From positions 62,001-126,000 of the forward strand of contig JANQKZ010000035.1 of the NCBI GenBank assembly GCA_028280845.1: a DNA stretch of 64,000 bases. Direction: 5' to 3'. Shown piece after piece: positions 42,967 to 51,919 of this stretch. The number at the start of each line of letters is the position of its first letter. Position 1 is the first letter of the stretch. The translations under genes were made by a program, and so were the position numbers. The DNA comes from Opitutales bacterium (GTDB lineage Bacteria > Verrucomicrobiota > Verrucomicrobiia > Opitutales > JABSRG01). Below the pieces are notes generated by a model. The model ran no database searches. It was given only the letters and a program-made list of their open reading frames with translations, and had not been told where the DNA came from.

Positions 42967-43024
42967 ATATGTATGGGTATCGGTTGTTATTTAACCTTTT
43001 AAAGGCTCCACCGCCTTCAATTTG

Positions 43025-43129
43025 ATGGCTACAGGCAATGAGGCAAAGATAAATCTTCAGACTACCTGGGAACAGGCAGTCACGATTATCGAAGGGTTTC
43101 TTATTAACCCTGAAGAGGTTCCAAAGGGT
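43025..43129 (+). pseudogene. Stranded original 5' end of rsmB (34 codons)
   Basis: An ATG at 43025 opens a 34-codon frame that ends in IIEGFLINPEEVPKG and a stop. The intact rsmB body at 51920 carries LVLGFLTNPEEAGKV at the matching place of its NusB-like domain. The WEQAVTIIEGFL segment fits the first helix expected there. The native order would be greA divergent from rsmB. I read this as the gene start cut off by the 8.9-kb insertion. This remnant fills part of the 318-base gap after greA. Confidence 0.65.
43106..43118. repeat. Putative attL core of the island
   Basis: AACCCTGAAGAGG here is repeated exactly at 51977-51989 at the far side of the AT-rich island, in the same orientation and the same codon phase (NPEE). 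Confidence 0.65.
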
Positions 43130-43176
43130 TAATCTTTAGTTTTTTAAGTTATTGTTTATTATAATTTTAAGAATTA

Positions 43177-43236
43177 TCAGATGAATCTCTGGTTTGGTTT
43201 GATGATCAAGTTAGAGGCCTTTTCACCATCATCTGA
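43177..43236. repeat. Spaced inverted repeat near the island's left end
   Basis: TCAGATGA at 43177 and its complement TCATCTGA at 43229 are flanked by ATTA and TAAT, in AT-rich DNA just before the recombinase remnant. They may be recombinase or excisionase arm sites, or a regulatory dyad. Confidence 0.35.
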
Positions 43237-43284
43237 CAAATAATTTCAGGGTTCTATATTTCTCAGCGTAAGCTCCCGTTGCAA

Positions 43285-44493
43285 ATGTCCAAGCCAAAAA
43301 GTTACTTCACTCTCAAGGTCATCCCTTTCAAGAATCCGTCTGGAGAAGAGGTTCACAGGGGGACTGGTCAGGCCGGTTATAAGCGGGTCAGGAAGAACTT
43401 CCAGACATACGCTGAAGCAGAAGCATATCTTGAAGAGATGAGGGGCAAATATGCTGGGATGGATCAGGACAACCGTAGGGCCTGTATGACGACCCTCCCT
43501 CCGCTTCGCCTGGCAGAATCCGAATACATTTATGCGGCCCTCCTTGAGAGGGGGAGAGGGAAACACTATCCCAGGTTTTCGACTTCTTATATCAAGCACA
43601 ACAAGCCGGTTATCGGCATAAAATTGGAGGAGGCGTGGGAAAATTATGCTGAGTAGGTCAGGGACGAGATCAGCCCCGGTAAGCTCGCGATGGATAAGTC
43701 CATAGTTAAAACAAGCTCTTTGGATATTTTGGTGGCCCCGACAAGCTCACCACAGGTATCACTCTTGCCCATCTCAACCAGACTATCAACGAACTAGTCT
43801 AGAAAAAGGACTCGGTCACTAAACCCAGCGATACAACAAGGAAGGATCGCTACACTCGACTTCACCTCTGGATGAACTGGCTGGTGAAGAGGAAGTTCCA
43901 TTCTTTCAATCCTCTTAAGGATGAAGCAGCACCAAAGATCACGGCAGAGGAGCCGGGTACATTGACATTTGAACAGTGTCAGAAGCTCCTTCAAGAGGCT
44001 GCAAAGTATAAGGAAGGGGTTTATGCTGCCTTACTTCGCTGTTGGGCTGTTATCGGGCATTAGACCGGATGGAGTGAAGAGGCTTAATACATGGGAGCAC
44101 TTCTCCCTCGAAGGGGAGCAGGCTTACATCGTCGTTCCTGACCGGGCATCGAAGACCAAAAGACATTTAGCCCACATCCCAGACAACCTGAGGATCATCT
44201 TGAAAGCTTGTAAAGACAGAGACCTTTCCCCCAGCGAATACAACTATCAGGACTTCACCAACATTCGGACTAATGCTGGTGTTGTTGATCCTGAGACCTG
44301 GGTAAATGATGTGATGTGTCACACTTTTGCTTCAATGCACCACGCTGTTCACGTGAACATTACCTACCTCGCTAACATAATGGGGACTTCAGAGGCTGTC
44401 CTGCGCAGAAACTATATAGCCCCAATTGATCCTAATGAGGCTAAGAAGTTTTCCCTGTTTTATGTGATAACAGGGACGGGGGAAATCAAGTAG
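43285..44493 (+). pseudogene. Decayed tyrosine recombinase (integrase)
   Basis: Three frames together encode one phage-type integrase. The N-terminal part (SKPKSYFTLKVIPF onward) ends at a TAG at 43654. The frame shifts near 43730 and meets a second TAG at 43800, then runs through the core-binding domain (WMNWLVKRKFHSFNP). A further shift near 44035 leads into the catalytic domain with GIRPDGVKRL, the first catalytic Arg. The HxxR box reads NDVMCHTFAS, so its His and Arg are lost. A Tyr remains in RRNYIAP. The enzyme must be inactive. Confidence 0.85.
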
Positions 44494-44672
44494 TTAGAGG
44501 TTGCCTAAGAAGTTTGGTTTTACCTTCACCAATAGTCGAAAGAATAAATAATGAGCATTAACTGGCACATAGTTCAACCGGAAACTTATTTCATTAAGGT
44601 TGTGAGTGTGAAGTGTTAGCGGATTTTCGCATTTTAAACAAAAATCGGGCAATAATGACTTTGTGGTATTCT

Positions 44673-46031
44673 CTACCAAACTAAAAAATCATAAAAAAAG
44701 GAATATGGATCCCACCGGAAGGAATTTGTAGAATGATCAAAATGAACTATATTTATAAAGTTATTAGTAAAAGGGTAAATCCTTCTCGCATTGAAAAGCT
44801 CTGAATTGGTCCATCCAATTAGGGATTCTGCTAGTTCATCGCTTTCCAGTAGCTCAAAAACTAATATAAATTCCCCATAACGTGAAAACAGTTCTTCAGG
44901 GGCAGAGTTTAATTCGGCGGGAGGGACACTTACAAAGTCTAGTTTTCGCCGCGCAATTAGGGGTCTAATACCCGTATTTCCCTTTGATAGGTAGGTTAAA
45001 AATAACCCCATGCTCTCAGTCAATAGTTCTTCTTTTCTTAAGAAATCTGCCTTAGATATTTCTTGGCCGTAATTGAATATTTCGTCAAAAGGGAAGGTCT
45101 TTTTGGTGTTATAAGATTTGAGGACCCCAATAAAGAAAGAATTAGCATGTCCCCAGATTGGGTTATCCTTGGAAATTTGATTCATATTGCTCCAGGAATT
45201 AAATCTTATTTGAGCCTCCTTGATGTTGTCTTCAAGATAGGAAAATCCTCTAGAGTAAATCGGGTTTTCTGGATCATTGTCTGGAATCAAATGAAATCCA
45301 GACTCCACGCTGTGAGTGGCGTATAACATGCCTAGACCGTATAAATATTCACGGTCCCCAGCAGTAAGCTTTGCGAGTGGCGTATTTGAAATACTATAAC
45401 TTGGTAGATGTTTCTGAAGGAACTCGATATGAATTTCATCTTTAAACTGGTTGGAAAGAAATTGGCTCCAATCCATTTGTAAAAGAATATAATTGTCCCC
45501 GATTGATTTGAAGAAATTTAATAGTATCGATCTATATACTCTCTCAGTAGTAAATTTTGGAATAGTATTCTTGGAGAGCCCCTGTTTTGACCAAAAATCA
45601 GCTTCCATGAATGATATTAATTCATCCTCAGTAATCACCTTTCTTTTGCACAAGGCACAGATGAGATTTATAAACTGAATTATCCTTCTGAACTCTGGGG
45701 TGGAGATTTCTGAACTAATGTCGGGGATTAAAATTTCTTGGGCCTTATCAGCCATTTCGACACTGTCAATCATACGACTCAAATGAACTAGAACTTCTTC
45801 GTGTACACGTGAAAAATTTTCCTCCTTAAGAATGTTAAAGTAGAAATCTGCTTCATGAGAATCGCTATGTGTTTCGTATGCTAATGCTGAGTAGTGGGGG
45901 CTGAAAATCAGCCCCACATTAATAATTGAATCTTCAACGCTCTTGGGGTTGTGGCTAACTAACGCTGCAGTGGTGGCCAAGAAAATGGCTGCAATGAGGG
46001 TTGTTTTAAAAATCGGAGCTGTTGTCCTCAT
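44673..46031 (-). CDS. Unknown exported or membrane-anchored protein (island)
   Basis: I do not recognise this protein of about 452 residues. It begins with a hydrophobic segment (FKTTLIAAIFLATTAALV) that should export or anchor it, and the rest is mostly helical with many aromatic and charged residues. The ATG at 46031 overlaps the protease gene upstream by 26 bases; an ATG at 46085 is also in frame. It is the last gene of the leftward protease operon. The 179 bases after it show nothing clear. Confidence 0.6.
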   Translation of the reverse strand: MRTTAPIFKTTLIAAIFLATTAALVSHNPKSVEDSIINVGLIFSPHYSALAYETHSDSHEADFYFNILKEENFSRVHEEVLVHLSRMIDSVEMADKAQEILIPDISSEISTPEFRRIIQFINLICALCKRKVITEDELISFMEADFWSKQGLSKNTIPKFTTERVYRSILLNFFKSIGDNYILLQMDWSQFLSNQFKDEIHIEFLQKHLPSYSISNTPLAKLTAGDREYLYGLGMLYATHSVESGFHLIPDNDPENPIYSRGFSYLEDNIKEAQIRFNSWSNMNQISKDNPIWGHANSFFIGVLKSYNTKKTFPFDEIFNYGQEISKADFLRKEELLTESMGLFLTYLSKGNTGIRPLIARRKLDFVSVPPAELNSAPEELFSRYGEFILVFELLESDELAESLIGWTNSELFNARRIYPFTNNFINIVHFDHSTNSFRWDPYSFFYDFLVW

Positions 46032-47238
46032 TGTATAATTTAAAGGCTTGAGATTCGGAAATATATTCACCGCCGGAGTATCCAAACATTAACTCATTTG
46101 GATCTGATGAGTGACCAACATTGGCAATCCCATGGATTAGTTCATGGGCGAATGTAAGCCAAACTGGGTTTGATGATTGGCCAACTTCAACAATGTTTTT
46201 CTTATAACTAAAATTCACATTTACCCCTCTTACATCCGTGCCGAAAGCTGATAGGTCGCCGACAAACGAGACATCAGCTGTATTATATGTACTTGCATAA
46301 TTTGCCGGAGTTACTGGATCAGGTCTAGAGGGGATGGATGTATCGCCGTAAAAAACTACCGGCCCGCTACGTGAAAATTGAGCCGTGCTCCGAAAGTCTA
46401 CACTGGCATCTTTCTTCAATAAATTCGTATTTGCATCACTCATCGTAGAGTCAACTTGTGGTGTTGTCCAAGTAAGAGTAGGAACTCTTTCAAAAATGTG
46501 ATCTGAAACTTGGGTTGAGAGAGCCCAATTTACCTTTGGATATGCGAAAAAGGAGGGAGAAACATTAATAGCCTCTCCAAGGTCAACATATGTATTGGAA
46601 TTGCTGTCCACCCAAAACATCACCGCCACAGGGCCAGAATTCGAACTACTAAAATTATGGGTATAAGGAGAGCTTGCGTCATATGACCCCGAAATTACGG
46701 TAGCAGGGGGGGGCATATCATATACTATCATTTTAGTATTAGCTGGGACGGACCCACCCCCAGCGGGGGTAATTTTGAACTCAAAAGTGGACCCCGTTTC
46801 GACAATTTCATCGTTGTTGGGGCTCAAGTTGAAAAATGAAGCCTCTGCGGGAGATGAATTTCTCTTATGTGAAATAGTTCCTGTTGAAAAGTTTGGATTT
46901 GGTATGGCAAATTTAACCACCTTCATTAACATATTGTCGTCACTCCCCACTGTATGGCAAATTTGTAGTCCTAAGCCTGTTAGGATTCCACTTACCGGTA
47001 AGAATGGAGAATTATCGTAGGCTCGGTATTGTATGCCAGATTCACCTATGAAACAAACTGTCGTGAGCCAAGTGGGCGGTAATGTGTCACACAATTCCCA
47101 TGTTACAACGTATCCCCCTTCATTTGCCGAGTAAATAGAATCAGTATACCCATCTCCATTGATATCTTGATATGTGACCCCCGATAGACTAGCATGGCCG
47201 AAGAGAGTGATCATAATTATAAACAAATTAGTTTTCAT
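46006..47238 (-). CDS. Exported metzincin-like zinc metalloprotease with shared N-terminal domain
   Basis: The 410-residue protein has a signal peptide (about 1-20), an N-terminal domain (21-110) opening with the calcium-type loop DINGDGYTDSIYS, a middle beta-rich region and a C-terminal zinc motif HELIHGIANVGH (His365, Glu366, His369, His376) followed by SSDPNELMF with a Met-turn-like Met384. That matches matrixin-type proteases except for one extra residue before the third His. The start at 47238 is set by a strong AAGGAGGAGG seven bases upstream. Residues 24-74 align without gaps to the exported protein at 49991. Confidence 0.75.
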   Translation of the reverse strand: MKTNLFIIMITLFGHASLSGVTYQDINGDGYTDSIYSANEGGYVVTWELCDTLPPTWLTTVCFIGESGIQYRAYDNSPFLPVSGILTGLGLQICHTVGSDDNMLMKVVKFAIPNPNFSTGTISHKRNSSPAEASFFNLSPNNDEIVETGSTFEFKITPAGGGSVPANTKMIVYDMPPPATVISGSYDASSPYTHNFSSSNSGPVAVMFWVDSNSNTYVDLGEAINVSPSFFAYPKVNWALSTQVSDHIFERVPTLTWTTPQVDSTMSDANTNLLKKDASVDFRSTAQFSRSGPVVFYGDTSIPSRPDPVTPANYASTYNTADVSFVGDLSAFGTDVRGVNVNFSYKKNIVEVGQSSNPVWLTFAHELIHGIANVGHSSDPNELMFGYSGGEYISESQAFKLYNEDNSSDF

Positions 47239-47291
47239 TACTTTCCTCCTCCTTATTAATTTCATTTTTATTTTCGTTAAAATGGTTGGAT

Positions 47292-47322
47292 TTTATAGGG
47301 CCTCAGGGTGGGGATTTGTCAA
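47292..47322 (-). promoter_or_regulatory. Sigma-70-like promoter of the protease operon with dyad over the -35 box
   Basis: On the minus strand TTGACA (47317-47322) and TATAAA (47292-47297) are 19 bases apart, about 50 bases before the start at 47238. Inverted arms GGGATTT/AAATCCC (47311-47329) cover the -35 box and could be an operator. The remainder of this 228-base gap is AT-rich without other signals. Confidence 0.5.
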
Positions 47323-47466
47323 AAATCCCTCAATCTATTGGCAAATATACCAAACTTAGCCGGTTGTGCATTCCTAAGTGAGCATTCGAAAGAATTCCAC
47401 TTATGCGCGTATGACCGGCTATTTTATGCAAATTGAAGGCTGAACCAAGGCGTATACCTGTTCATC

Positions 47467-47853
47467 CTACCACCTCTTCCTAAGGATCACGAAAGTATTA
47501 AGGAAGACATAGACCCTCTTTCCTTCCACATAATCCCATATTTCTCCTTTCCTATCGTTTAAGTCTGTCAAAATGTTGAAAAGCTCTGAGTCGTGAGGAA
47601 CTTTCCGAAGCTGCCAATTCAAAATGGGTCGCTCTCCCACTGGTGATATCCGGTCAACCTCGCGCTTGTTTATGCTCACCTTTTTTCCGCCCATTATTCC
47701 ATCAGACAGATACATTTGGAGGCCATCTAATACAGTCACATAGGCAGACCGAATTATGTCCCGCCTTCGGATTGATTCCAGTTCTTCAAAAAACTCAATC
47801 GTAAGGTCCTCTTTCAGGTCTGACAGCTTTAAGTGTAACCAAGGATAGTCCAT
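47467..47853 (-). CDS. Unknown small cytoplasmic protein (island)
   Basis: I do not recognise this 128-residue protein. It is soluble, highly charged and ends in a hydrophobic beta strand (KRVYVFLNTFVILRKRW). It starts 13 bases after the gene for the tail-anchored protein, so the two are probably expressed together with the YHYH gene. Confidence 0.55.
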   Translation of the reverse strand: MDYPWLHLKLSDLKEDLTIEFFEELESIRRRDIIRSAYVTVLDGLQMYLSDGIMGGKKVSINKREVDRISPVGERPILNWQLRKVPHDSELFNILTDLNDRKGEIWDYVEGKRVYVFLNTFVILRKRW

Positions 47854-47866
47854 TTGCTAAATCCCG

Positions 47867-48508
47867 TTACTGCGCCTTCGCTACCCACCAAACCACTATC
47901 CCAATAACTATCGCTACCATTATGAACCAAGCCAAGCTAAGTTGCTTATCTTTTTGCTCTACCAAGTCTCCATACAGAAGCTCTTCGATAAGGTAGGAAG
48001 CGTCCAGCATAGACGCCCTGTCTGACAGGGAGCCCCCCAACTCTGATATAAATTCCCGCTGGGCCTCTGAGGCGGGCTCTTCCCTCCACTCCTCGGCATA
48101 CCTTCTCCTAAGCTCAGCTGACTCTCTCATCTTCTGCCTCCGTCTGGCTTCTCTTTGGGGGGCGTCCTTTTCGATTTCGTCAGCTATGGCTTCTCGCCTC
48201 GCGGCCTTTGCTACGTCTCGTTCCTCCTTTGGGACAACTCTGAGTAGGGCGCGGTGGATTCGGCCATAGTCAGTAGGCCATTTATCTGACAACTCAATCA
48301 CGTCTTCGACCTCCTCCTTTAAAAAGTCAGTAGCTGGGAGTGCTCCCGTAGGGACAGATTCCAACCAGTTCTCTAACTCTTCTAGCTCGTGCTCTTCAAA
48401 CTTTCCGTCCTCTAGCCACTCAACACAGATCTCTAGCAATGACTTCCCAACGCCCCCGGAAGCTTGTTTCTTTGTGAGGGTTACCCTAGCAGATTTCTTT
48501 TCCGCCAT
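47867..48508 (-). CDS. Tail-anchored helical protein (island)
   Basis: The product of about 213 residues has a helical N-terminal segment (LLEICVEWLEDGKFEEHELEELENWL) like the short helical units seen beside BRCT domains, then a very charged coiled coil (EIEKDAPQREARRRQKMRES), the motif ASEAQREFISELGG and a C-terminal membrane anchor (WFIMVAIVIGIVVWWVAK). I chose the ATG at 48508, which follows GGAGG and sits eight bases after the upstream stop; an earlier ATG overlaps that gene. Function is unknown. Confidence 0.55.
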   Translation of the reverse strand: MAEKKSARVTLTKKQASGGVGKSLLEICVEWLEDGKFEEHELEELENWLESVPTGALPATDFLKEEVEDVIELSDKWPTDYGRIHRALLRVVPKEERDVAKAARREAIADEIEKDAPQREARRRQKMRESAELRRRYAEEWREEPASEAQREFISELGGSLSDRASMLDASYLIEELLYGDLVEQKDKQLSLAWFIMVAIVIGIVVWWVAKAQ

Positions 48509-48515
48509 AAGTCGC

Positions 48516-49250
48516 CTATCCTCCACAGATTCCACAGGCTTTCCCTGTCTTGTTGGTCGTCAGTATACCCTTGCTAGTGTTGTTGAACCAGCGACATGAG
48601 CGGTTGTGCCTGACGTTCGTTCCAGTATTAATCCAATAAACTGTAGAGCTGGCTTTGGATGCTCCCGCCGAGGCCGCTGAGGTAGAAGAAGTTCCCCGAA
48701 GGTTCACCAAGTCATTTATACTGACGTGATTGTTTATCAGCCAAATATCAATGTCCCTTTTAAAGCAGATCTCTTGGGCTGCTCTGAAAAGTTCGTAGCC
48801 GTTCGACTCTCCGTCTATATAAAGGGCCAGTCCTGCTCTCTTCTCTGTGGCTGACGCATACTTCAAGACCTGGGCAATTCCCTCCTGGTATTTGGACACC
48901 TTGTCTACCTCAATGGCGTGGGTGTCAGTCACGATATCAACCGTACCTCCAGTTACTGTTACTTCGAGTTTACCTTTTGTTACCTTGTTATTGAAGGCAG
49001 TCTGCCAGTGATTCTCGGTGTATGAAGTTGGTTGAGAGGTGCTGGGGTTTGTAGTTGATGAATAGGAGGAGGACCGAGGTTTACTAGAGCTAGTGGAACT
49101 CTTCTTGGGTGCCCCGTGGTAGTGATATTCCCCAGTCTTCCGGTTGTAGTGTCCCCCGTTTGAGTCGGTCCTGCCTCCGTGAGGTAGTAAAATACTCGAA
49201 ATCCCAATTAGAAGCCCAAGACAAAGGGACAGTGCTTTAACTCTTTTCAT
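48516..49250 (-). CDS. Exported YHYH protein with nuclease-like core and Cys/His tail (island)
   Basis: The 244-residue protein has a signal peptide (about 1-22), a YHYH module (GGHYNRKTGEYHYH, His34, 43 and 45), a Ser/Pro/Thr linker (50-78), a core at 80-172 (VDIVTDTHAIEVDKVSKYQEG as a guide) resembling PD-(D/E)XK-type nuclease folds, and a C-terminal tail with His215, Cys219, Cys239 and Cys242 (RHNRSCRWF, CGICGG) that should bind metal. A strong AAAGGAGG precedes the ATG. The usual catalytic Lys is not obvious (EVD instead of EVK), so activity is uncertain. Confidence 0.65.
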   Translation of the reverse strand: MKRVKALSLCLGLLIGISSILLPHGGRTDSNGGHYNRKTGEYHYHGAPKKSSTSSSKPRSSSYSSTTNPSTSQPTSYTENHWQTAFNNKVTKGKLEVTVTGGTVDIVTDTHAIEVDKVSKYQEGIAQVLKYASATEKRAGLALYIDGESNGYELFRAAQEICFKRDIDIWLINNHVSINDLVNLRGTSSTSAASAGASKASSTVYWINTGTNVRHNRSCRWFNNTSKGILTTNKTGKACGICGG

Positions 49251-49399
49251 GTTTCCTCCTTTACATTATGGCTTGCCTAAGCAGGAATGCATTATCTGGA
49301 GGTAATGTATGCAGGGGAATAAATCCAGCTAAAACGATGAAGATTAGAATCAGGGAGAACGTTGAGAGGCAGTACACGTTGGCGGGAACTGGGTGTGAA

Positions 49400-49981
49400 T
49401 TAGAGGTTGGAAAACCGCAGCTCAATTTCTTGTTTTATCTCAGATATCACACCCTCAGAGAACCCACACTGCATAGCGTATAGATAAACTTCCTCGATGT
49501 TTAGATAATTTAGGAAGTCAATTACTGAGTTTTCACAGCGATCTCTCACTTTGACTAATGCCCTATATTCTCTCTTTGTTTGGAGTTGCTGGCTCAGCTT
49601 CTCGCTGTGCTTTTCATAAATAACCTCATACTCCTTCCTGAGCTTTTCATCTTTGATGGATTCAATGCTGACTCCTGATGGATAGCCCGGGGGGGCAGGT
49701 GGTGTTATTATGATTAGCTCATCCTCATTATAATTTAATTCGTCCAATTCAGCGCTAATGAGATTGGACAGCTTTGAATATGAGAGGACTAACGATTTTA
49801 GACTTATCAGAGTCTCAGAACGTGGGGTGTTCCTTGATAGATTTGATAGATCACTGTAAAGAGACTCTAATTTAGCGAGATCTGGTTCCTCTACCTCAGT
49901 TATTGTTTGAGATATTTCATCGATAGATGGTATGGTGGCGCCTATCGAAAAAGAACAAATTGCAATAAATAGTAAGTTCAT
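49400..49981 (-). CDS. Unknown exported helical protein (island)
   Basis: I do not recognise this 193-residue protein. It begins with a short hydrophobic segment (LLFIAICSFSIGA) like a signal peptide and is otherwise helical, with a proline-rich break (PPAPPGYPSG) in the middle. It starts nine bases after the 367-residue gene and is probably cotranscribed with it. The 149 bases that follow, before the YHYH gene, hold only that gene's ribosome site. Confidence 0.5.
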   Translation of the reverse strand: MNLLFIAICSFSIGATIPSIDEISQTITEVEEPDLAKLESLYSDLSNLSRNTPRSETLISLKSLVLSYSKLSNLISAELDELNYNEDELIIITPPAPPGYPSGVSIESIKDEKLRKEYEVIYEKHSEKLSQQLQTKREYRALVKVRDRCENSVIDFLNYLNIEEVYLYAMQCGFSEGVISEIKQEIELRFSNL

Positions 49982-49990
49982 CGAATTAAA

Positions 49991-51094
49991 TTATGGAGTG
50001 AACCACCCCGGGATACTTGTTGGCGAATTAAGTTCTACTGACATAAAGGAGCCAGTTTTGAAGCGATCCGTTGTTCCAGTGGTTGAGCAGTTCGCTCCTG
50101 AGTTTATTGTTCCAAACTGCTTGGAGTTTCCTGTTCCCACTCTGAACAACAACTCTATGTCCCAGTTCCAGGTTCCCAATCCGTAATAGGGGGGGCCTTG
50201 GGGCTTAACTGTGACTTCGTCTGTGCCGTCCAATTCATTCGGTCTCTGCGAAGTGCCGGCTTTTATGTCGATCCATTGAGATGTCGGGGTGTGAGTAATC
50301 CCGTTGTAGTTGCTATAAAAGTCAAAACCAACCGCAGTTCCGCCGCCCTCTTTAAATTGCACATTATAGAAGGATACATCTTCGGGTGTGAAATAGTATT
50401 TGGCGAGGAACCCTGCGCTTGCTTTTCCTTGAATATGGTAAATCCCCTCGCCGGGCTGGTTTATAACATAAGCCCCAGCAGGCTCGACGACATCAAAGGA
50501 AACGCTATATTGGCGCCCATCATAGGTGGCATAAATTGTTGGGTCTGATGCTCGTTCATGGGCGGTAAAAACTACCTGATTCCCTGTGGGCGCTGATAGA
50601 CTTCCACTTCCAGAAACAACCCAGGATACGTTGGAAGGAGATGACGCCCCAGGATTTAAAGTCAGCTCTACTTCCTCACCAACTCCAATTTTCTTTCTAG
50701 TTTTATCAGTGGGATACGAGGCGAAGGTCTCAGTATCAATTTCTCTGCCTCCCATTTTCGCAACTCGCATATTAGGGCCTATATAAATCGACCTAGAAAC
50801 CGTATACGATAGCTGAGAACCGGTGCCATATATGTAGTAGGATAGGGCAATATATGATCCATAGTATAACTCATAGACTCGGTAAATCTCGCCGCCAATC
50901 CCAGTCCAAATTATTGTAGACAGAAATTCGGGAGGCATCCCGTCACAGAATTCCCCACTAATTGTGAAGCCAGGGTCTGTATAGCTATATATTGTATCGT
51001 TGATGGAATCGCCATCGACATCTAGGGTTACGGAACCGCTTAAAAATAAGGAGCTTATGATTAATGTTGATATTAGAATTGATACCAATTTCAT
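49991..51094 (-). CDS. Exported multidomain protein sharing the protease's N-terminal domain (island)
   Basis: The 367-residue protein has a signal peptide (about 1-20), an N-terminal domain (21-115) whose residues 24-74 align gap-free to the metzincin-like protein (shared D25, GD, D33, IYS, E48, CD, PP, YR), an Ig-like segment (about 130-215, VSWVVSGSGSL) and a beta-rich C-terminal domain (215-367) with WNWDIELLFRVGTG and one Cys. GAGGAGGG lies nine bases before the ATG, inside the end of the upstream gene. Function is unknown; an adhesive or effector role is possible. Confidence 0.65.
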   Translation of the reverse strand: MKLVSILISTLIISSLFLSGSVTLDVDGDSINDTIYSYTDPGFTISGEFCDGMPPEFLSTIIWTGIGGEIYRVYELYYGSYIALSYYIYGTGSQLSYTVSRSIYIGPNMRVAKMGGREIDTETFASYPTDKTRKKIGVGEEVELTLNPGASSPSNVSWVVSGSGSLSAPTGNQVVFTAHERASDPTIYATYDGRQYSVSFDVVEPAGAYVINQPGEGIYHIQGKASAGFLAKYYFTPEDVSFYNVQFKEGGGTAVGFDFYSNYNGITHTPTSQWIDIKAGTSQRPNELDGTDEVTVKPQGPPYYGLGTWNWDIELLFRVGTGNSKQFGTINSGANCSTTGTTDRFKTGSFMSVELNSPTSIPGWFTP

Positions 51095-51096
51095 TT

Positions 51097-51756
51097 TTAT
51101 CCCTCCTCTTTCTCTACGGCTACCTGTTTATATATTTTGCTTTCAAGCACTTGAATGAAGGCGTCTTGGTCGCAAGATACACTGATAGATAAATCTTGGT
51201 TTTTAATGTCTAAATTGCCGGTGATGTCCAAGAGATCTAAATATACTTCTAGTAGTTGAGATTCGCCCTCTTGCTTTACTTCGAATATATAGTCCAAAAA
51301 GACAAACGAGGCCACCTGTGCTGTTTCAGTGTCAACAGAGTAATAGCTACCGGAGTGAATCCACTGCTCTCCGCCTTGGATTCTTTCAGGAGTGTTGAAG
51401 ATTAATTCCGCATCCTTTTGATCTATGCCAGTTAGGCTTAGGCCCACCACAAGGTTATTAATGTAAAGGCGGGTTGACCCGGCTGCCTGCAGTTTGATGG
51501 GCATCCTAACCAAGTATGTCCCAAGATCGTCTGGGTATTGGGGGAGGATAAAACTTACTGTCCCCTTTTCCAAAAACTTTAGTTGAGATTGTCCCCCAAG
51601 GGGGCGATCAATCACCTCTATCAGATTGGAAGTTTCTGAAGTGACTTTACTCTTACGGCTTTCTAGAAGTTCCCACTCAAAAACTTCTGATTCTGCGATT
51701 AATAAAGAGGGCAGCCCCGCACAGATCAGGACCCCAATAATTAACTTTCCTGACAT
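51097..51756 (-). CDS. Unknown exported beta-rich protein (island)
   Basis: I do not recognise this 219-residue protein. It has a signal peptide (IIGVLICAGLPSLLIA) and a beta-sandwich-like pattern (STRLYINNLVVGLSLTGI). Its stop is two bases before the next start, so it heads an operon with the 367- and 193-residue genes. No ribosome site precedes its ATG, which fits the leaderless promoter described next to it. Confidence 0.55.
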   Translation of the reverse strand: MSGKLIIGVLICAGLPSLLIAESEVFEWELLESRKSKVTSETSNLIEVIDRPLGGQSQLKFLEKGTVSFILPQYPDDLGTYLVRMPIKLQAAGSTRLYINNLVVGLSLTGIDQKDAELIFNTPERIQGGEQWIHSGSYYSVDTETAQVASFVFLDYIFEVKQEGESQLLEVYLDLLDITGNLDIKNQDLSISVSCDQDAFIQVLESKIYKQVAVEKEEG

Positions 51757-51762
51757 AAATTT

Positions 51763-51791
51763 ATCTTATAGTGATATGTTCTCGGTATCAA
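51763..51791 (-). promoter_or_regulatory. Promoter of the right-hand island operon, probably leaderless
   Basis: On the minus strand TTGATA (51786-51791) and TAAGAT (51763-51768) are 17 bases apart. The expected first transcribed base falls at or next to the A of the ATG at 51756. Confidence 0.45.
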
Positions 51792-51919
51792 TGAAATTAA
51801 TATATTATTTTCTATAAGCTCTACATAAAAGACACCCAGCGTCCTTCACTCTCCTTCGGTGTCAGATTCCCTGTGATCCACCTCTCTCCGCTGCCGTCCA
51901 GACCTTAAATATTTGCCAT

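What the first reader, a model, noticed from the sequence alone, without database searches (positions are those of the whole stretch)
48516..49250. Secreted YHYH - nuclease-like core - Cys/His tail protein
Three modules lie behind a signal peptide: a His-rich YHYH box, a core with the VDIVTDTHAIEVDK and QEGIAQVLKYA pattern reminiscent of PD-(D/E)XK enzymes, and a RHNRSCRW...CGICGG metal-binding tail. An exported protein with this core on a mobile element may act on extracellular DNA or on competitors. The next gene is a tail-anchored coiled-coil protein that could be an immunity or anchoring partner (inference).
Basis: partly seen in the sequence, partly recalled or inferred. Interest (0 to 1): 0.55.

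Follow-up and report, generated by a model that had tools for sequence, protein, structure and literature searches.

The report
Exported nuclease-fold protein on genomic island
A bacterium carries, on a small inserted piece of DNA, a protein that appears to be shipped out of the cell and looks like a DNA-cutting enzyme; some of its uncatalogued relatives sit in phages and beside phage control genes, so they may destroy foreign DNA as it enters the cell envelope.

Summary
ORF 48516-49250 (minus strand, 244 aa) has a signal segment, a YHYH box (NF033223, above cut-off), a compact core and a conserved H-x3-C...C-x2-C tail. AlphaFold2 models the core confidently (pLDDT 92.9); its best solved matches are EndoMS/NucS nucleases (Z 10.0), then Can2, CdiA-CT, PaqCI, Card1, EcoT38I. 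The core belongs to a widespread family that no Pfam, NCBIfam, PHROGs or PADLOC model covers (176 relatives in one genome scan, 28 viral contigs, 8 phage records). E, E, D, ExD/E, E, QxxxY are nearly invariant; the usual ExK lysine is replaced. Two cysteines covary (65 both, 29 neither, 0 single of 94) and 99 of 106 members have an N-terminal hydrophobic segment, which argues for export. Other proteins with the tail are mostly SNase nucleases (12 of 19 tail proteins). A minority of members lie near integrases (15 of 108 loci) or phage repressors. The window copy lies on an 8.9-kb island with a broken integrase, between genes that adjoin in 8 of 9 relatives. Best reading: an exported metal-dependent nuclease attacking incoming or extracellular DNA. 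The immunity-partner idea is unsupported. Activity is untested.

The parts
48516..49250 (-). Exported YHYH - nuclease-fold core - Cys/His tail protein, 244 aa
   Evidence: ORF; family and fold evidence
49182..49250 (-). Signal segment (residues 1 to about 23)
   Evidence: Hydrophobic stretch in the sequence; helix 3-20 in the model; a hydrophobic segment also precedes 99 of 106 relatives' cores versus 73 of 258 neighbour ORFs
49116..49181 (-). YHYH box (residues 24-45)
   Evidence: NF033223 above cut-off
48717..49031 (-). Nuclease-fold core (residues 74-178); conserved E79, E96, D105, E114, D116, K120, E123, Q127, Y131
   Evidence: Core-only model pLDDT 92.9; EndoMS/NucS Z 10.0; conservation
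48519..48638 (-). Cys/His tail (residues 205-244), H215, C219, C239, C242
   Evidence: 23-row alignment of tails; 12 of 19 tail proteins match SNase
47867..48508 (-). Next gene, 213 aa, C-terminal hydrophobic segment; orphan, role unknown
   Evidence: ORF; no match in 287 other genomes
42967..51919 (.). Inserted island between the greA-like gene and rsmB
   Evidence: 8953 bp between matched ends here versus 98-359 bp in 8 of 9 relatives with both genes on one contig; G+C 0.435 versus 0.535 and 0.546 in the flanks
43237..44493 (+). Broken tyrosine-integrase-like gene, three open pieces in two frames (the middle piece assigned by eye)
   Evidence: Pieces; relatives of the last piece mostly have open frames of about 340-500 aa; no integrase Pfam match for the pieces

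Best explanation
It is an exported member of an uncatalogued family of restriction-endonuclease-fold proteins, most likely a metal-dependent nuclease. The signal segment sends it across the inner membrane. The core binds divalent metal through D105, E114 and D116, helped by E79/E96 and by K120, and cuts DNA. The YHYH box and the Cys/His tail bind metal and probably hold the protein at the envelope or stabilise it outside the cell. Because some relatives are carried by temperate phages and sit near repressor or integrase genes, the likeliest benefit is to destroy foreign DNA (superinfecting phage, transforming DNA) before or while it enters the cell, protecting the resident element. The copy in the window lies on an island whose integrase is broken, but the nuclease gene is kept. 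Shown by computation: fold, conservation, export signature, domain swapping, island, phage context of some members. Inferred: catalysis, substrate, location, benefit. I put exported nuclease at about 0.8 and the exclusion benefit lower; the figure below is for the whole statement.
For: Core-only model, pLDDT 92.9, pTM 0.85, order H-E-E-E-H-E-H-E. VIA-align: EndoMS/NucS Z 10.0 twice (90 and 93 residues, rmsd 2.4 and 2.6), then Can2, CdiA-CT, PaqCI, Cdn1, SfsA, Card1, EcoT38I. The residue string E,E,D,E,D,K,E,Q,Y is identical in 85 of 94 rows and differs only by D116E in 4 more. It is kept in the window copy although that core has the longest end branch of the tree. In A1, 13 rows retrieved without the later scan patterns, the positions of E96, D105, E114, E123, Q127 and Y131 are invariant. 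An ExD plus K residue set is also listed for a known restriction-endonuclease-fold toxin family, Tox-REase-3 (PMC3482391, passages). Cys87 and Cys106: both in 65, neither in 29, single in 0 of 94. A hydrophobic segment precedes 99 of 106 cores versus 73 of 258 neighbour ORFs. The tail is fused to SNase in 12 of 19 proteins, lies in a gene annotated 'DNA/RNA non-specific endonuclease' in one plasmid, and follows other members of this core (L002, L045, L046, L113). In Roseibacillus, core and tail are separate neighbouring genes between a repressor-like gene and an integrase-like gene (L086, read by eye). Annotated phage records: the core gene is one base from 'repressor LexA' in NrS-4, one small gene from 'repressor protein CI' in Dulem virus 31, about 1.1 kb from the repressor in NrS-2, and next to a 'recombinase' in RR1-A. 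Integrase-like ORFs occur in 15 of 108 loci, 14 of them within 2 kb.
Against: No activity data. Foldseek against the PDB gave no match at E 0.001 or better for either model. The full-length model gave Z 6.8 at most and did not list EndoMS/NucS, and the tool warns that Z under 8 can be a common arrangement; only EndoMS/NucS rows pass 8. The canonical ExK lysine is D or E, and K120 is N in L086 and L007. In 93 of 108 loci no integrase-like ORF was found; seven Campylobacterota loci share chromosomal neighbours, one read by eye as ATP synthase subunit a. PADLOC has no model that matches any of 94 members. The window copy lacks the cysteine pair. Scan patterns favoured part of the conserved residues. 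Several integrase seeds were chosen because they were near, and L069 and L126 look like the same element.
Confidence: 0.45

Rival explanations
1. Exported nuclease for scavenging extracellular DNA as nutrient or remodelling biofilm DNA, with no role in defence.
For: 12 of 19 tail proteins match SNase, a family that includes secreted nucleases (recalled). Some members share chromosomal neighbours across Campylobacterota.
Against: Position near repressors and integrases in some phages and elements and patchy distribution, 8 of 286 genomes of the class, fit a gene of mobile elements.
Confidence: 0.25
2. Toxin aimed at competitors (CdiA-CT-like nuclease), with 47867-48508 as immunity or anchor.
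For: CdiA-CT toxins are among the structural matches (Z 7.5 and 7.0); weak Tox-REase-3 matches in 3 of 13 core rows (best E 0.055).
Against: No delivery domain found in the island proteins scanned; the neighbour is an orphan and does not recur beside other members; the cysteine pair of relatives suggests folding outside the cytoplasm.
Confidence: 0.06
3. Non-catalytic metal- or DNA-binding envelope protein (for example a DNA receptor) that kept the fold but lost nuclease chemistry.
For: The ExK lysine is missing and two members have N at position 120.
Against: A near-invariant acidic set and QxxxY across 94 divergent rows, of the kind expected for a metal site.
Confidence: 0.12

Closest known systems
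EndoMS/NucS C-terminal nuclease domain (PDB 2vld, 5gke)
   Same: Same arrangement of helices and strands over 90-93 residues, Z 10.0; RecB-like nuclease motifs are reported for it (PMC8228993, passages)
   Different: [quoted passage not shown] this protein carries an export signal, lacks that domain, and has ExD instead of ExK (ExK in NucS is recalled)
Tox-REase-3 (restriction-endonuclease-fold toxin domain, PF15647)
   Same: Restriction-endonuclease fold with listed residues [KR]ExD, K, ExQxK (PMC3482391, passages), so an ExD set is known in this fold; weak matches of 3 of 13 core rows
   Different: All matches are weak (best E 0.055); in that paper it is a polymorphic-toxin domain with immunity partners, which are not found here
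CdiA-CT nuclease toxins (4g6u, 4zqu)
   Same: Similar fold, Z 7.5 and 7.0
   Different: CdiA-CT/CdiI toxin and immunity complexes (entry titles); here a stand-alone protein without a recurrent partner
BamHI (1bhm)
   Same: Fold match Z 5.3, no better than unrelated rows at that rank; BamHI also lacks the lysine, having ExE (recalled)
   Different: Intracellular sequence-specific restriction enzyme (recalled)
Prophage DNases of Campylobacter (dns, dns2, dns3 of CJIE1-, CJIE2- and CJIE4-like phages)
   Same: Nucleases carried by integrated phages; strains with broken dns or dns2 were transformable (PMC10893306, passages)
   Different: No sequence comparison was made here; I recall them as DNA/RNA non-specific endonucleases, a different fold
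SNase proteins with the same tail
   Same: Same C-terminal Cys/His tail
   Different: SNase catalytic domain instead of this core

Membership tests
PD-(D/E)XK (restriction-endonuclease-like) superfamily | alpha-beta-beta-beta-alpha-beta core | tested here: met
   H6-18 E21-26 E29-34 E38-44 H45-62 E65-71 in the core model
PD-(D/E)XK (restriction-endonuclease-like) superfamily | Structural match to known members | tested here: met
   EndoMS/NucS Z 10.0 with the core-only model; Foldseek alone gave nothing at E 0.001 or better
PD-(D/E)XK (restriction-endonuclease-like) superfamily | Conserved acidic metal ligands (D in strand 2, E in strand 3) | tested here: met
   Position 105 is D in all 93 relatives; position 114 is E in 92 and D in 1
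PD-(D/E)XK (restriction-endonuclease-like) superfamily | Canonical lysine two residues after the E (ExK) | tested here: not met
   That position is D in 85 and E in 8 of 93 relatives; a lysine six residues after the E is present in 92 of 93. Hence described as a fold relative with a variant active site, not as a canonical member
PD-(D/E)XK (restriction-endonuclease-like) superfamily | Metal-dependent nuclease activity | not testable with these tools
   Needs purified protein
NCBIfam NF033223 YHYH_alt domain | Score above curated cut-off | tested here: met
   40.9 bits, cut-off 30
Pfam YHYH protein (PF14240) | Score above gathering cut-off | tested here: not met
   11.7 bits, cut-off 25
Pfam Tox-REase-3 (PF15647) | Score above gathering cut-off | tested here: not met
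   Window protein not listed; best core row E 0.055; not listed for 94 rows at E 0.01
EndoMS/NucS | N-terminal DNA-binding domain before the nuclease domain | tested here: not met
   Only the signal segment, YHYH box and a low-confidence linker precede the core
SNase (PF00565) | Pfam match | tested here: not met
   No match for the window protein, while 12 of 19 tail proteins match
CDI toxin/immunity system | CdiA delivery domains and a linked immunity gene | tested here: not met
   No Pfam match to such domains in the eight island proteins scanned; neighbour orphan
Known anti-phage defence proteins (PADLOC-DB 2.0.0) | Match to any model at E 0.01 or better | tested here: not met
   0 families for 94 members

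The most novel reading that the evidence does not exclude
A widespread, uncatalogued family of exported, often disulfide-bearing nuclease-fold proteins forms part of the lysogeny region of temperate phages and islands and acts as an envelope-located DNA-entry barrier (superinfection or transformation exclusion); the window protein is a domain-shuffled, metal-box-bearing version kept by a chromosome after the element lost its integrase.
Probability: 0.3. Interest if true: 0.75.

Novelty: new variant of a known kind. Interest (0 to 1): 0.52.

Why it matters
Known prophage exclusion proteins mostly block DNA entry or act in the cytoplasm (recalled); an exported nuclease near the repressor would be a different way to keep rivals out, and it could be tested with isolated temperate phages such as Nitratiruptor NrS-2 to NrS-5 or with host deletions. 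No model in the four family libraries searched covers the family (three members match phrog_5928, unknown function, best E 1.6e-4), so a family of small proteins found in at least 176 places of one genome scan could receive a testable function.

Tried and rejected
Pfam, NCBIfam, PHROGs and PADLOC gave no family for the core: on 94 members there were only weak or few matches (Tox-REase-9, 1 member, E 0.0057; phrog_6497, 4 members, best 0.0036; phrog_5928, unknown function, 3 members, best 1.6e-4; PADLOC none). phrog_5928 may hold a viral branch of the family; not followed up. Sequence searches of solved structures with the protein, core profiles and tail profile gave nothing convincing. Foldseek with the full-length model was uninformative, and the core-only model still gave nothing at E 0.001 or better in the PDB. 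The immunity-partner idea was rejected. A CDK5_activator match (E 0.014, below cut-off) was taken as chance. No direct repeats of useful length were found between the two ends of the island (longest shared word 10 bases). In the clustering of neighbours the second-largest cluster was taken, by position, for ORFs on the opposite strand of the core itself and ignored.

Limits: the conservation counts in A2 are partly biased by the scan patterns; only the best 80 of 176 genome relatives were kept by the tool. Rows dropped before A2: 111 core ORFs from the scans, 98 with a near-complete core, 93 after a 90% identity filter and an X filter. Five partial core ORFs of 111 were left out of the hydrophobicity count. 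The 19 tail proteins come from the 30 loci listed for the window protein, of 42 matches, and from a motif that demands a CGG end. Two tail pattern matches were left out of A7. The neighbour scans used a greedy ORF choice without a gene finder, and one of 151 neighbours was cut to fit 150. Literature: the terms tried gave no paper describing such a family (listings seen, passages read only where cited); subscription journals are mostly not held.

Full report
What is there. The minus-strand ORF 48516-49250 encodes 244 aa. From its N-terminus: a hydrophobic signal segment, a YHYH box (NF033223, 40.9 bits, cut-off 30), a Ser/Pro-rich linker, a core (about residues 74-178), a second low-confidence linker, and a Cys/His tail (205-244). 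There is one copy in the genome. Pfam gives nothing above its cut-offs.

The core is a family. The whole protein matched 31 of 387 genomes of the phylum, many through the tail or YHYH box only. Thirteen core sequences from that search were aligned (A1). A profile-guided scan of one genome per species found 176 relatives, of which the best 80 were kept; 28 loci came from viral contigs. Members come from Verrucomicrobiota, Thermodesulfobacteriota, Campylobacterota, Pseudomonadota, Bacteroidota, Nitrospinota and others. By profile search 8 of 286 genomes of the window's class have it (the window's own genome included; one of the eight only at E 9.5e-4), some with several copies: a patchy distribution. 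In the tree the window core has the longest end branch (2.51) and falls among Opitutales rows without strong support. That the window genome is Verrucomicrobiota is my inference from this.

Active-site residues. In 94 aligned rows the string E79 E96 D105 E114 D116 K120 E123 Q127 Y131 is identical in 85, and 4 more differ only by E at 116. The window copy keeps all nine although it has lost the family's W121 and G126. The scan patterns cover part of this stretch, so those counts are inflated; in A1, which did not use the patterns, the positions of E96, D105, E114, E123, Q127 and Y131 are still invariant. Four phage sequences (NrS-2, NrS-4, RR1-A, Dulem virus 31) found by tblastn with one relative's core and read keep D, ExD, K, E, Q and Y by eye, while the two from the related NrS phages lack the W. 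The position of the usual lysine of (D/E)XK enzymes is D or E here; a lysine follows six residues after the ExD glutamate. Two members have N there (L007, L086), both with E at 116. An ExD plus K set is listed for the restriction-endonuclease-fold toxin domain Tox-REase-3 (PMC3482391, passages), which 3 of 13 core rows match weakly (best E 0.055). BamHI, recalled, also lacks the lysine (ExE).

Fold. The full-length model has core pLDDT of about 94-97 for residues 81-140 and 81-83 for 141-170; the core-only model has mean pLDDT 92.9, pTM 0.85. With the core-only model VIA-align ranks EndoMS/NucS entries 2vld and 5gke first (Z 10.0; 90 and 93 residues; rmsd 2.4 and 2.6), then EndoMS apo (7.8), Can2 (7.5), CdiA-CT (7.5), PaqCI (7.4), a second CdiA-CT (7.0), Cdn1, SfsA, Card1 and EcoT38I. 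By my knowledge of these entries, ranks 1-17 are restriction-endonuclease-fold proteins except AF2093, whose nature I do not know; ERCC1 (a nuclease-like fold) is at rank 18, and the first clearly unrelated row (Rab5a) is at rank 21 with Z 5.4. The full-length model gave an overlapping group (CdiA-CT, Can2, BsoBI, YaeQ, BamHI, SfsA, EcoT38I, Card1, Hjc) at Z up to 6.8, without EndoMS/NucS. Against this, Foldseek found no PDB match at E 0.001 or better with either model, and Z under 8 may be a common arrangement by the tool's own note. In the viral model library Foldseek found ten matches at E 0.001 or better, several of them KilA-N proteins of giant viruses.

Export. Cysteines at 87 and 106 are both present in 65 rows, both absent in 29 and never single. 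The four phage sequences also have both. I take this as a disulfide (inference; no coordinates were measured). A hydrophobic N-terminal segment precedes 99 of 106 cores with enough upstream sequence; the same test is positive for 73 of 258 neighbouring ORFs. The window copy lacks the cysteine pair but has the signal segment.

The tail and domain shuffling. W, H, C, G, G, C, C, G are invariant in 23 tails. Of 19 tail-bearing proteins among the loci match SNase and 1 DUF3465 (by elimination L028); L015 has YHYH plus tail, the window protein and L002 have this core, and L020, L022 and L029 (87-115 aa) are little more than signal plus tail. A Thiospirochaeta plasmid gene with the tail is annotated as a DNA/RNA non-specific endonuclease. 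Core plus tail recurs in L045 (two tails), L046 and L113. YHYH plus core recurs in L003/L037, L038 and L039. In Roseibacillus (L086) a repressor-like gene, the core gene, a separate small tail protein with a signal segment, and an integrase-like gene lie together (first and third read by eye): separate there, fused here. The three modules together were seen only in the window. The YHYH box itself has no tested role; a larger YHYH domain of jumbo phages has been predicted to be a metal-dependent hydrolase with a zinc site (PMC7824862, passage), but the window box fits the short NCBIfam model, not the Pfam one.

Mobile elements. The island: the greA-like gene and rsmB, divergent neighbours, have matched ends 98 to 359 bp apart in 8 of the 9 relatives that have both on one contig (17 relatives were searched); here they are 8953 bp apart, and one relative (G393) has 5456 bp there with other genes. 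The island is lower in G+C (0.435 versus 0.535 and 0.546 in the flanks) and holds an integrase-like gene in three open pieces, while most relatives of its last piece have open frames of about 340-500 aa. In other genomes an integrase-like ORF was found in 15 of 108 loci (10 of 80 genome, 5 of 28 viral), 14 within 2 kb, although about half of the flanking bases lie farther. Several seeds of that profile were chosen because they were near, and L069 and L126 look like one element, so this is suggestive only. In phage records the core gene is one base from the 'repressor LexA' gene (NrS-4), about 1.1 kb from the repressor (NrS-2), one small gene downstream of 'repressor protein CI' (Dulem virus 31) and next to a 'recombinase' (RR1-A). 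The NrS paper, searched for six terms, does not mention this gene in the passages shown (PMC9723563).

How it most likely works. An exported metal-dependent nuclease that meets foreign DNA in the periplasm or outside. Phage-encoded DNases that make Campylobacter non-transformable give a precedent for the benefit (PMC10893306, passages). Nutrient scavenging is the main rival; seven Campylobacterota loci with shared chromosomal neighbours show that the family is not only mobile, and PADLOC matches no member. Fold and export are well supported; catalysis, substrate and benefit are inferred.

The neighbour 47867-48508 has no match in 287 other genomes and none in the fetched loci other than the window's own; nothing supports immunity, and an exported enzyme may not need it.

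Noticed in passing
window 46006-47265 (-) and 49991-51094 (-): Two island proteins with signal-like N-termini share a similar start region by eye; the first ends with an HELIHGIANVGH stretch like a zinc metalloprotease motif (motif recalled; no Pfam match above cut-off).
   Followed up: no
L086 3183-5909: Roseibacillus mini-cluster: repressor-like gene, nuclease-fold gene, separate tail-only gene with a signal segment, integrase-like gene. A natural split version of the window protein.
   Followed up: partly
core model maf52468e5346 versus BFVD: KilA-N proteins of giant viruses (moumouvirus, mimivirus and others) match the core fold at E 3e-6 to 7e-4 with TMq 0.64-0.80, suggesting the domain also occurs in viruses of eukaryotes.
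   Followed up: no
L149 (G393:C132:7800-13500): A relative carries other genes over about 5.4 kb at the same greA-like/rsmB site, some with signal-like N-termini: a possible insertion hot spot.
   Followed up: partly
L031-L036: Proteins on viral contigs with a YHYH box, some followed by a hydrophobic segment and another H..C...C..C tail, but without the nuclease core.
   Followed up: no
L028: The same tail follows a DUF3465 domain (member inferred by elimination), a family of unknown function that may therefore belong with exported nucleic-acid enzymes.
   Followed up: no
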